From NCBI RefSeq assembly GCF_900537175.1, contig NZ_LS999833.1, positions 1,612,001 to 1,676,000 on the forward strand: a stretch of DNA of 64,000 bases, in the 5' to 3' direction. Numbering within the stretch: position 1 is the stretch's first letter; each line of letters opens with the position of its first letter. The notes under the pieces are model-generated. The model was not told the origin of the DNA. It saw only the letters and a list, made by a program, of their open reading frames with translations, and searched no databases. The stretch is from Lentilitoribacter sp. Alg239-R112. Lineage in GTDB: Bacteria; Pseudomonadota; Alphaproteobacteria; Rhizobiales; Rhizobiaceae. Below are positions 18,436 to 31,064 of this stretch, one piece after another. Position numbers and translations under genes: made by a program.

Positions 18436-18473
18436 TGAAGAAAAAGTGAAGGCTTCTGTTGCCAGGTGCCTTC
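18436..18473 (-). terminator. Terminator-like hairpin at the 3' end of ssrA
   Basis: On the minus strand the stem GAAGGC/GCCTTC encloses a second stem CTG/CAG closed by a GCAA tetraloop, followed by ACTTTTTC. It ends the tmRNA precursor before sspB. Confidence 0.65.
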
Positions 18474-18530
18474 GAACCCCGCCTAGTCGTGCGAACAACT
18501 AGGACTTAATGTGAAACTATCGAACCGCAA

Positions 18531-18572
18531 TTAAGCAGCTAGACGTGCTTCCGCATAGTTGTTATCATTTGC
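18531..18572 (-). other. tmRNA tag reading frame (ANDNNYAEARLAA-stop)
   Basis: The resume codon GCA follows GTAGTT, and the frame reads A-N-D-N-N-Y-A-E-A-R-L-A-A then TAA. The ending LAA is the ClpX-recognised C-terminus and the AND start is the SspB-bound part. It is not a free-standing gene. Confidence 0.92.
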
Positions 18573-18957
18573 AACTACAAGTTTAGTCCGATAACGGTGG
18601 TACAATGCCGAGTAAAAGTACAATCTTTACGCCCTCGTCGATCCTATTTCGCCCCCATCATAATTAGATCTATCTTGATCAGAAGGATCAAATTATGGTG
18701 GAGGCGCCGGGTACCGCCCCCGGGTCCGAATGGTTTATTACACTGCCAATTTATTACCATAGCTACACAAGGTAGCCTCCTATATATAGTGCCTTATGAA
18801 GTTCATGAAAAGGGTCATCAGATTAAAATTCAGAAATCAGGGAGAATTCATCGCAATTTTAATGGTTTTTGCTTGCAAAATTGTCATAAAACATGTGTTT
18901 ATTAGCAGATAGAACAGCAAATAACTTGCGATTATGGGGAATAGGTGAGGAAATTTT

Positions 18958-28466: not shown

Positions 28467-28495
28467 TTGACGCATTATTCAAATAAGGCTAAAAG
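28467..28495 (+). promoter_or_regulatory. Probable promoter of the ilvIH leader
   Basis: A perfect -35 TTGACG (28467-28472), a 17-base spacer and a -10-like TAAAAG (28490-28495). Transcription would begin about seven bases later, at or next to the leader ATG (28502), making the leader peptide leaderless or nearly so. Confidence 0.5.
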
Positions 28496-28501
28496 TTAGC
28501 T

Positions 28502-28558
28502 ATGAAACAAAAAATTGAAATTCTGGTGGTGGGAAAGCGTATGGGCAAGATGGTGTAA
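28502..28558 (+). CDS. ilvIH leader peptide (attenuation), 18 residues
   Basis: The frame reads MKQKIEILVVGKRMGKMV then TAA. The cluster I-E-I-L-V-V puts codons for all three branched-chain amino acids, the end products of the operon, in a row at codons 5-10. The stop codon lies in the loop/right arm of a 7-bp hairpin (28548-28564), and an intrinsic terminator follows before ilvI. This is the classical arrangement of a ribosome-stalling attenuator leader, as known for ilv operons of enterics and for Caulobacter ilvBN. There is no ribosome site, which fits translation from a transcript starting at the AUG. Confidence 0.75.
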   Translation: MKQKIEILVVGKRMGKMV

Positions 28559-28564
28559 CCATCT
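28548..28564 (+). promoter_or_regulatory. Leader pause hairpin of the ilvIH attenuator
   Basis: AGATGGT and ACCATCT pair perfectly over 7 bp with a 3-base loop across the leader stop codon. A second, enclosing pairing of 28537-28545 (GCGTATGGG) with 28576-28584 (CCCATGCGC) has nine pairs including one G-U. These are candidate pause or alternative structures; the exact antiterminator is not resolved. Confidence 0.55.
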
Positions 28565-28590
28565 GGCGAAAGCATCCCATGCGCGATACG

Positions 28591-28615
28591 AAGGCTCCTA
28601 AAGGAGCCTTTTTTT
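28591..28615 (+). terminator. Attenuator terminator upstream of ilvI
   Basis: An 8-bp perfect stem AAGGCTCC/GGAGCCTT with a TAAA loop is followed by five more T. It stands 33 bases after the leader-peptide stop and 44 bases before the ilvI start, so it would stop transcription before the operon. Confidence 0.9.
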
Positions 28616-28658
28616 ATGCCATCAAAATTGACTTAATAGAGTAAAAGAAGACAAAAAA

Positions 28659-30458
28659 ATGACTGGAACTGACAACGAATTGTCCGAGGATGCAAACCAT
28701 ATGACCGGTGCCGAAATGGTACTTAAAGCGCTGGAAGAAAATGGTATCGAGCATATTTTTGGCTACCCGGGCGGTGCAGTATTGCCAATCTATGATGAAA
28801 TTCATCAGCAAGATGCGGTTCAACATATTCTCGTTCGTCATGAGCAAGGCGCTGGCCATATGGCTGAAGGCTATGCTCGCTCAACCGGAAAAACGGGGGT
28901 CTGCCTTGCAACCTCTGGTCCAGGCGCCACTAACGTTGTGACCGCGCTTCAGGACGCCTTGATGGATTCTATCCCAATGGTTTGCATCACTGGTCAGGTG
29001 CCAACCAACTTGATCGGATCTGATGCTTTCCAAGAATGTGATACAGTTGGCATTACGCGCCCATGCACAAAGCACAACTGGTTGGTTAAAGATGTAAACG
29101 ACCTGGCTAAGACCTTGCACGAGGCATTTCATATTGCAAGCAGTGGTCGCCCCGGTCCAGTTGTTGTTGATATTCCAAAGGATGTTCAGTTTGCCACTGG
29201 AACATATGTACCAAAAGCAAAAATGGCCAGTCGAAAAAGCTATAAACATGCAACATCTGGTGATATGAACCAGATTAAGAAAGCTATTGAATTATTGAAA
29301 GGTGCCAAACGCCCAGTCATCTATTCAGGTGGCGGCGTCGTGAATTCTGGTCCGGAAGCGTCAAAATTACTTAGAGATTTGGTATCTTTAACATCGGCGC
29401 CAATTACATCAACGTTGATGGGTTTAGGTTGCTACCCGGCCTCTGGTGAAGCCTGGCTTGGTATGCTTGGCATGCACGGCACTTATGAAGCCAATATGGC
29501 CATGCATGATTGCGATGTTATGCTGTGTGTTGGGGCTCGATTTGATGATCGTATAACAGGCCGCCTTGATGCATTCTCACCCAATTCAACAAAGATTCAT
29601 ATTGATATAGATCCATCTTCAATCAATAAAAATGTATATGTGGACGTCCCTATTATTGGAGATGTGGTGCCTGTACTTGAAGACATGGTCCGTATTTGGC
29701 GCGCAGAAGCAGCCTCACTGGAAAAAAGCAGGTTGGCTAAATGGCATGCGCAAATTGATACATGGCGGGCGCGTAATTCGCTCGCATATGCGGACAATAA
29801 AGATGTGATTATGCCGCAATATGCCGTTCAACGTTTGTACGAGTTAACCAAGGACAAGGACACATATATCACCACCGAAGTCGGTCAACATCAGATGTGG
29901 GCAGCACAATTCTACGGTTTTGAGGAGCCAAATCGTTGGATGACATCAGGTGGCCTCGGTACGATGGGTTATGGCTTTCCAGCAGCCATAGGTGTACAAG
30001 CGGCCCATCCTGATAGTTTGGTAATCGATATTGCAGGCGATGCATCCATACAGATGTGCATCCAGGAAATGTCGTGTGCAGTTCAGCACAATTTACCCGT
30101 TAAAATATTTATTTTGAACAACAATTACATGGGTATGGTTCGCCAGTGGCAACAACTATTACACGGGAATCGTCTATCAAATTCTTACACAGAATCCATG
30201 CCTGACTTTGTCAAACTAGCAGAAGCTTATGGTGGTGTGGGGATACGCTGCTCTAAGCCAGCAGATCTTGATGGAGCCATTAATGAGATGATTTCAATTG
30301 ACAAACCAGTTATCTTTGACTGCAACGTGGCAACTCTTGCCAATTGTTTCCCAATGATCCCGTCTGGCAAAGCACATAACGAAATGTTGTTACCGGACGA
30401 GGCCACTGATGAAGCTGTTGCCAATGCAATTGATGCCACTGGTCGTGGACTGGTATAA
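28659..30458 (+). CDS. ilvI: Acetolactate synthase, large (catalytic) subunit
   Basis: 599 residues. A ThDP- and FAD-dependent enzyme that makes 2-acetolactate or 2-aceto-2-hydroxybutyrate, the first common step of branched-chain synthesis. The N-terminal ThDP-PYR domain shows IFGYPGGAVLPIYDEI with the catalytic Glu in VRHEQGAGHMAEGYAR. The central FAD/DHAP-like domain includes MHGTYEAN and CVGARFDDRITG. The C-terminal ThDP-binding motif GDASIQMC...NNNYMGMVRQWQ binds Mg2+ and diphosphate. It is the first gene after the attenuator, and ilvH follows 12 bases after its stop. Confidence 0.97.
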   Translation: MTGTDNELSEDANHMTGAEMVLKALEENGIEHIFGYPGGAVLPIYDEIHQQDAVQHILVRHEQGAGHMAEGYARSTGKTGVCLATSGPGATNVVTALQDALMDSIPMVCITGQVPTNLIGSDAFQECDTVGITRPCTKHNWLVKDVNDLAKTLHEAFHIASSGRPGPVVVDIPKDVQFATGTYVPKAKMASRKSYKHATSGDMNQIKKAIELLKGAKRPVIYSGGGVVNSGPEASKLLRDLVSLTSAPITSTLMGLGCYPASGEAWLGMLGMHGTYEANMAMHDCDVMLCVGARFDDRITGRLDAFSPNSTKIHIDIDPSSINKNVYVDVPIIGDVVPVLEDMVRIWRAEAASLEKSRLAKWHAQIDTWRARNSLAYADNKDVIMPQYAVQRLYELTKDKDTYITTEVGQHQMWAAQFYGFEEPNRWMTSGGLGTMGYGFPAAIGVQAAHPDSLVIDIAGDASIQMCIQEMSCAVQHNLPVKIFILNNNYMGMVRQWQQLLHGNRLSNSYTESMPDFVKLAEAYGGVGIRCSKPADLDGAINEMISIDKPVIFDCNVATLANCFPMIPSGKAHNEMLLPDEATDEAVANAIDATGRGLV

Positions 30459-30470
30459 GGAGGAGCTATT

Positions 30471-31064
30471 ATGAACGCACAAGAAAAGCCAACAGGCTCA
30501 GCCTATTTTCACCAAGTTGTTGAGCATGAGATCGTCACACGCACACTTTCTGTTGTCGTGGATAATGAACCGGGCGTATTAGCACGCGTTATCGGCCTAT
30601 TCTCTGGCCGTGGCTACAACATTGAAAGCCTCACCGTTTCTGAGACCCAACACCAACGCCATCTGTCTCGCATCACGATTGTTACGCGTGGAACGGAACA
30701 CGTGCTGGAGCAGATTAAAGCACAGCTAGAGCGAATTATTCCTGTTCACCGCGTGATTGATCTGGATGAAACTGCAGCCAAACTAGGCTTTGAAAAACCC
30801 ATCGAACGGGAACTTGCGTTGGTTAAAGTCAAAGGTAAGGGTGAAGCCCGGTCCGAAGCATTACGGATTGCCGATGCTTTTAAAGCAGAAGTTGTTGATG
30901 CGAATACTGAGCATTTTATTTTTGAAATCACAGGACGCGTTTCTAAAGTCGAGCAGTTTATCCAAATTATGCGACACCTTGGTGCTATTGAGATTTGCAG
31001 AACTGGTATCACAGCGATGAATAGAGGTTCCGAAGGCATCTGGGGCAGCGAGCAACCAAGTTAA
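30471..31064 (+). CDS. ilvH: Acetolactate synthase, small (regulatory) subunit
   Basis: 197 residues. It binds valine and gives feedback control to the catalytic subunit. An N-terminal ACT domain (about 22-95) begins RTLSVVVDNEPGVLARVIGLFSGRGYNIESL, of which the GVLARV and GYNIESL blocks are the valine-site signature. A C-terminal ALS-ss domain contains RELALVKVKG and FEITGRVSKVEQFI. A strong AGGAGG ribosome site precedes the ATG, and it is co-transcribed with ilvI. Confidence 0.96.
   Translation: MNAQEKPTGSAYFHQVVEHEIVTRTLSVVVDNEPGVLARVIGLFSGRGYNIESLTVSETQHQRHLSRITIVTRGTEHVLEQIKAQLERIIPVHRVIDLDETAAKLGFEKPIERELALVKVKGKGEARSEALRIADAFKAEVVDANTEHFIFEITGRVSKVEQFIQIMRHLGAIEICRTGITAMNRGSEGIWGSEQPS

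What the first reader, a model, noticed from the sequence alone, without database searches (positions are those of the whole stretch)
28467..28615. ilvIH attenuator with a leaderless branched-chain leader peptide
Upstream of ilvI lie, in order, a TTGACG -35 with 17-base spacing to TAAAAG, an 18-codon frame MKQKIEILVVGKRMGKMV starting where transcription should begin, a 7-bp hairpin spanning its stop codon, a nine-pair longer-range helix (28537-28545 with 28576-28584), and an intrinsic terminator before ilvI. The I-E-I-L-V-V run would stall ribosomes when any branched-chain aminoacyl-tRNA is scarce. Attenuation is established for ilv operons in enterics and Caulobacter. The leaderless start resembles rhizobial trpL. 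By analogy, the roughly 115-nt terminated RNA and the peptide could act in trans, which is inference.
Basis: partly seen in the sequence, partly recalled or inferred. Interest (0 to 1): 0.7.

Follow-up and report, generated by a model that had tools for sequence, protein, structure and literature searches.

The report
Leaderless ilvIH attenuator, known RNA family
This is a known type of RNA switch in front of branched-chain amino acid genes; its tiny leader gene seems to start at the very first base of the RNA, and the usual base-paired antiterminator could not be found, so how it switches is still open.

Summary
Promoter, 18-codon leader MKQKIEILVVGKRMGKMV, stop-codon hairpin, nine-pair helix and terminator lie as described upstream of ilvI-ilvH. 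The element is not new: it matches Rfam RF02502 "Rhizobiales sRNA Atu_C8" (102 bits, cut-off 50), found in 146 of 151 family genomes. A S. meliloti ilvIH cis-regulatory element was listed in 2008, citing Vitreschak 2004.

Comparison supports the leaderless start. Of 172 unique elements with one possible ATG, the TTGAC-to-ATG distance is 34-39 nt in 143, 53-75 nt in 25 and 40-52 nt in none; Shine-Dalgarno-like motifs mark 26 of 33 long-distance but 4 of 171 short-distance elements. Both helices covary.

One part of the attenuator reading fails. Pairing of the terminator's 5' arm upstream is worth at most -2.3 kcal/mol in the window; E. coli trp (-9.3), his (-10.5) and this genome's own trpL (-8.5) have it. 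So it probably works like an attenuator, without a detectable pairing antiterminator. Action in trans was not tested and has no support here.

Side finding: copies precede a Bcr/CflA-like MFS gene in Rhizobium and Mesorhizobium.

The parts
28467..28472 (+). -35 element TTGACG
   Evidence: at about the same distance from the ATG in most relatives
28490..28495 (+). -10 element TAAAAG
   Evidence: TA at this place is common in leaderless relatives; not flagged by the generic scan
28502..28558 (+). leader ORF MKQKIEILVVGKRMGKMV, start codon at the expected transcript 5' end; I/L/V codons between 28514 and 28531
   Evidence: relatives
28504..28624 (+). Rfam RF02502 Atu_C8 match, 102 bits
28537..28584 (+). 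helix A, 28537-28545 paired with 28576-28584, enclosing the stop codon
   Evidence: 98.8% of cells paired, 7 of 9 pairs with changes on both sides in 56 sequences
28548..28564 (+). hairpin across the stop codon (28548-28554 with 28558-28564)
   Evidence: 86.2% of cells paired, 7 of 7 pairs with changes on both sides; its lowest pair is unpaired in 27 of 56
28590..28616 (+). intrinsic terminator with T-run
   Evidence: helix 4 (91.7% of cells paired)
28659..30458 (+). ilvI, acetolactate synthase large subunit
   Evidence: NF006581 1180.9 bits (cut-off 974)
30471..31064 (+). ilvH, acetolactate synthase small subunit
   Evidence: NF008864 220.4 bits (cut-off 119)

Best explanation
An ilvIH transcription attenuator of the Rfam Atu_C8 family. 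The promoter starts transcription at or within a base or two of the AUG, so ribosomes load on a leaderless RNA and read Ile, Ile, Leu, Val, Val. With enough charged tRNA the ribosome runs to the stop codon inside helix A, leaves, and the terminator yields an RNA of about 115 nt. When charged tRNA is short the ribosome stalls with its front edge close to helix A and more polymerases read through into ilvIH. Shown by sequence and comparison: anatomy, conservation, covariation, leaderless geometry. Inferred: transcription start, response to amino acids. How stalling defeats the terminator is not shown; pairing of an antiterminator is not supported, so steric or kinetic interference by the stalled ribosome plus helix A is the working guess.
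For: RF02502 at 102 bits, in 146 of 151 family genomes. 210 of 235 classified elements precede ilvI. Helix covariation score 0.375 against 0.173 shuffled, 0 of 500, and at most 0.112 when slid. Distance and Shine-Dalgarno contrast. 151 of 171 unique leaderless leaders hold Ile, Leu and Val codons together. Val codon GTA is 60% of leader Val codons against 2.2% in ilvI. In Caulobacter a leader CDS with transcription attenuation of ilvIH is reported (PMC4117421, passages).
Against: No antiterminator by folding in the window or in most relatives. A/T-ending codons are enriched in the leader for other amino acids too (48% against 23% in the gene; I/L/V 58% against 15%), so codon choice is only partly specific. 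The loci were picked by a scan that asked for at least four I/L/V in seven, so I/L/V content is biased upward. Nine leaderless-class loci have a Shine-Dalgarno energy below -4 kcal/mol. No expression data.
Confidence: 0.75

Rival explanations
1. Classical attenuator with a pairing antiterminator that simple folding misses (pseudoknot, protein-assisted, or species-specific).
For: A minority pass: 7 of 150 unique leaderless, 7 of 33 SD-led and 3 of 7 other elements have a best value at or below -6 kcal/mol. In L269, from another order, the test reaches -9.7 and helix A abuts the terminator. In the all-pairs list the columns 28544 and 28596 score 0.119 with 89% pairable cells.
Against: Window at most -2.3; the pairings seen in 19 inspected cases differ from species to species. 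The pair 28544-28596 sits in a stretch where lineages that change helix A do not keep it pairable by my reading of alignment A1. Complementarity to the terminator arm is below shuffles, though that scan is weak.
Confidence: 0.2
2. The terminator acts constitutively and the main product is the small RNA Atu_C8, acting in trans; ilvIH is expressed by constant leak-through.
For: Rfam files it as an sRNA. By analogy rnTrpL of S. meliloti acts in trans (PMC7298713, passages).
Against: The place upstream of ilvI is kept across families. No target or trans effect was tested.
Confidence: 0.12
3. The leader peptide itself is a functional product.
For: peTrpL precedent only (PMC7298713, passages).
Against: The N-terminal part varies and the C-terminal part changes with helix A (endings RMGKMV, RTRVAV, RIGNVG, RSAGEA).
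Confidence: 0.05

Closest known systems
Rfam RF02502 Atu_C8 (Rhizobiales sRNA)
   Same: Full-length match, same helices and terminator; in two Agrobacterium tumefaciens contigs (L140, L141) the match lies upstream of ilvI.
   Different: The output seen describes an sRNA and names no leader peptide or ilvIH link.
ilvIH attenuators of alphaproteobacteria (Vitreschak 2004 as cited for S. meliloti in PMC2573895, passages; Caulobacter ilvIH leader, PMC4117421, passages)
   Same: A cis-regulatory element or leader CDS before ilvIH.
   Different: The 2004 paper was not held, so its proposed structures could not be compared. No Caulobacter sequence was compared directly.
Rhizobial trpL / rnTrpL
   Same: Leaderless leader ORF in S. 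meliloti (PMC7298713, passages). This genome's own trpL has TTGCAT 36 bases before its ATG, by my count on the sequence printed.
   Different: The own trpL passes the antiterminator test (-8.5 kcal/mol); the ilvI element does not.
E. coli trp and his attenuators
   Same: Control codons in a leader ORF and a terminator.
   Different: Both have a strong antiterminator in the same test.

Membership tests
Rfam RF02502 Atu_C8 | covariance-model score at or above 50 bits | tested here: met
   102 bits, full model 1-122
Rfam RF02502 Atu_C8 | discrete small RNA in the cell | not testable with these tools
   no RNA data for this genome
classical ribosome-mediated attenuator | short leader ORF with control codons of the pathway's amino acids | tested here: met
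   (relatives selected in part by this feature)
classical ribosome-mediated attenuator | intrinsic terminator before the first structural gene | tested here: met
classical ribosome-mediated attenuator | antiterminator mutually exclusive with the terminator, freed by stalling | tested here: not met
   window at most -2.3 kcal/mol over masks 0-78; trp -9.3, his -10.5 within its leader, own trpL -8.5; pseudoknots not covered
classical ribosome-mediated attenuator | readthrough rises on starvation for the amino acid | not testable with these tools
   needs an experiment
leaderless leader peptide (trpL type) | transcript starts at the AUG, no Shine-Dalgarno | tested here: inconclusive
   strong comparative support, no 5' end mapping
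dual-function attenuator (rnTrpL/peTrpL) | RNA or peptide acts in trans | not testable with these tools
   variation of the peptide outside the codon run speaks against the peptide

The most novel reading that the evidence does not exclude
A ribosome-stalling attenuator that needs no antiterminator pairing: helix A folds about 48 nt into a rod, so a ribosome stalled on the I/L/V codons sits close to the polymerase and hinders the terminator hairpin, which begins 0-8 nt after helix A, by bulk or timing. The same module, with no pairing partner to re-evolve, could be moved intact in front of other genes, as seen for an MFS exporter gene, where anything that stalls ribosomes could also trigger it.
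Probability: 0.22. Interest if true: 0.75.

Novelty: new member of a known kind. Interest (0 to 1): 0.4.

Why it matters
It links an Rfam "sRNA" family to ilvIH leaders across many Hyphomicrobiales. It offers a natural comparison of leaderless and Shine-Dalgarno initiation on one attenuator. It also points to a well-conserved attenuator-like element without a detectable textbook antiterminator, which makes the switching step testable.

Tried and rejected
Antiterminator search: masking sweep, single-case inspection of 19 loci (72), all-pairs covariation (45), duplex scan (88). Nothing conserved was found. In the duplex scan the known attenuators do not stand out either (27, 4 and 15 of 100 shuffles as strong for trp, his and own trpL), so it is a weak discriminator; the masking test separates them. 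In the his control the lowest value, -13.8, falls at a mask past the leader's stop; within the leader it is -10.5.

Rare-codon argument: GTA enrichment looked specific at first, but other amino acids are A/T-biased too, so I downgraded it.

Phe_leader (20.5 bits, cut-off 55) and antisense Histone3 (18.5 bits, cut-off 34) matches are below cut-off. A pattern search of the own genome for further leaderless attenuators used too short a gap, found nothing and was uninformative. Upstream of two leuA-like genes of the own genome, both below the leuA cut-off, the scan showed no leader.

Class-wide look: 55 of 77 genomes had an IlvI match. Of the 54 loci other than the window's (L254-L307, one of them of the same order), 12 had a candidate leader, 3 of these a terminator, and only L269 looked alike. 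The filter was strict and two loci were cut near the gene start, so absence elsewhere is not shown.

Script faults, superseded: minus-strand loci L002-L031 not turned; column shift lost plus-strand hits, redone in 41; 8 rows were wrong upstream ORFs, and where several ATGs existed the one nearest 35 nt was chosen; 43 cleans and 93 gives the unbiased table; unturned loci, redone in 66; the own-trpL row took the wrong T-run; redone from its own ATG in 93. The leaderless class is defined by TTGAC at 34-39 nt. L056 is in it but may be SD-led by another start. The counts 171, 150 and 149 of unique leaderless elements differ by how much flank was compared.

Papers: Wilms 2012 and Vitreschak 2004 are not held; the link of Atu_C8 to Wilms 2012 is recalled.

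Full report
What is there. The stretch 28504-28624 is a full-length match to Rfam RF02502 Atu_C8. The downstream genes are ilvI and ilvH by NCBIfam equivalog models. The generic promoter scan did not flag the promoter.

How common. RF02502 matches at E <= 0.001 occur in 76 of 101 genomes of the near-relative sample, 60 over the cut-off, 168 of 297 of the order sample, 56 over the cut-off, and 146 of 151 of the family sample, 142 over the cut-off; the window's genome is in each. The five family genomes without a match are 1.2-2.0 Mb. None of 14 control genomes matched. The window's genome has one match.

What it precedes. I scanned 242 fetched loci (L002-L243) for leader ORF, T-run and a downstream IlvI or MFS match; 8 gave none. 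Keeping the leader nearest each gene left 235 elements: 210 before ilvI and 25 before an MFS gene. Loci overlap in part, since the same genomes were reached twice; unique elements are 171 leaderless (149 ilvI, 22 MFS) and 40 others. G337 has two ilvI copies, each with its own element (L224), and L032 and L090 have it before a diverged acetolactate synthase.

Leaderless or not. Of 211 unique elements, 172 have a single possible ATG. Their TTGAC-to-ATG distance is 34-39 nt in 143, 53-75 in 25, 40-52 in none, under 34 in one, and no TTGAC in 3. If every ATG candidate is counted, 17 fall at 40-52, from the 28 elements with more than one ATG. Shine-Dalgarno-like four-mers occur in 4 of 171 unique leaderless and 26 of 33 SD-led elements. 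Median Shine-Dalgarno energy is -1.4 against -6.2 kcal/mol, but nine leaderless-class loci lie below -4. On a quick IlvI tree of 112 rows (75 leaderless, the first 75 of those in a list of 182 distinct proteins, plus 31 SD-led and 6 other), leaderless needs 5 changes against 31.3 shuffled, at least 3 forced by starred branches. It dominates the window's family; SD-led forms lie in a few other branches of that family and in other families. Leaderless-class rows outside the family (L063, L070 in the tree; L210-L220 among loci not in it) suggest more than one switch. The root of that tree is not inferred.

Structure. On 56 sequences under 84% alike, helix A is paired in 98.8% of cells with 7 of 9 pairs changed on both sides, and the stop hairpin in 86.2% with 7 of 7, its lowest pair being unpaired in 27 of 56. 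The whole structure scores 0.375 against 0.173 for shuffles (0 of 500) and at most 0.112 when slid. The structure was taken from the window's own fold, which favours it over slid versions in the cells-paired measure. By MFE all 189 unique elements have a helix enclosing the stop codon; the next helix begins 0-8 nt after it in 188.

The missing antiterminator. I truncated each RNA before the terminator's 3' arm, masked the 5' side as a ribosome would, and measured the free energy gained by pairing the terminator's 5' arm upstream. E. coli trp reaches -9.3 and his -10.5 within the leader (-13.8 at a later mask); the window never goes below -2.3 at masks 0-78. This genome's own trpL, MNIQMQNGMWWWAR before trpE(G), reaches -8.5 at the mask that fits a stall on its Trp codons. 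At seven masks (18-54), of 150 unique leaderless elements the median best value is -2.75 and 7 reach -6; of 33 SD-led -4.3 and 7; of 7 others -5.5 and 3. Of 19 cases inspected the pairings differ. Complementarity of the leader to the terminator arm is below that of shuffles in the window (59 of 60 shuffles as strong or stronger; median z +1.3 in 150 leaderless, +0.56 in 33 SD-led), but this scan does not separate the known attenuators well. A pseudoknot or protein-assisted antiterminator is not excluded.

Codons. All 171 unique leaderless leaders have at least 4 I/L/V codons, 151 with all three amino acids; the scan required four in seven, so this is partly by selection. In 84 ilvI elements under 90% alike (73 genes read), GTA is 58% of Val codons at positions 2-12 against 2.2% in ilvI, 60% at positions 2-10. 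A/T-ending codons make up 58% for I/L/V against 15% in the gene, and 48% against 23% for other amino acids.

Mechanism. A stalled ribosome reaches about 12 nt past the start of its A-site codon (general knowledge). Helix A starts 0-9 nt after the start of the last I/L/V codon in 183 of 189, so stalling there brings the ribosome against or several bases into helix A; stalling on the earlier codons leaves it free. With no pairing antiterminator found, either bulk or timing must carry the effect, or the effect on the terminator is absent. I put 0.75 on an amino-acid-responsive attenuator and leave the last step open.

MFS copies. In Rhizobium and Mesorhizobium contigs (L086, L096, L107, L108, L110, L111, L114, L117, L120, L125, L127, L133, L135 and others; names) and in G177 of another family (L229), a leaderless-class element with leaders such as MNTALVLVVVGRRMGRMV precedes an MFS gene. 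The L107 protein's best model is TIGR00710 Bcr/CflA efflux, 186.9 bits, below its cut-off of 200.9. Of 151 family genomes 67 had a match at E <= 1e-60, but only G231 at 60% identity or more; the rest were at most 46%. The MFS search of papers listed five, none of them on this by title and abstract start.

Literature. S. meliloti ilvIH is listed as a cis-regulatory element citing Vitreschak 2004 (PMC2573895, passages). A Caulobacter ilvIH leader CDS with attenuation is reported (PMC4117421, passages). The S. meliloti Ribo-seq paper has no word starting with 'ilv' in its main text (PMC10117765). A search for 'Atu_C8' found one unrelated paper.

Noticed in passing
L107:6887-7007, L110:3944-4064, L127:5625-5745, L229:1242-1362: RF02502 elements upstream of a Bcr/CflA-like MFS exporter gene instead of ilvI, in Rhizobium, Mesorhizobium and one genome of another family.
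   Followed up: partly
L224: Tandem ilvI-ilvH-ilvI with an attenuator of the same leader sequence before each ilvI.
   Followed up: partly
L032, L090: Attenuator before a second, diverged acetolactate synthase gene (58-67% identical to the window's IlvI).
   Followed up: partly
L246: This genome's own trpL (MNIQMQNGMWWWAR) before trpE(G) looks leaderless and passes the antiterminator test.
   Followed up: partly
alignment A1 columns 83 and 96: The terminator keeps a U-G wobble in 38 of 56 sequences; reason unknown.
   Followed up: no
window 18445-18815: Alphaproteobacterial (permuted) tmRNA on the minus strand.
   Followed up: no
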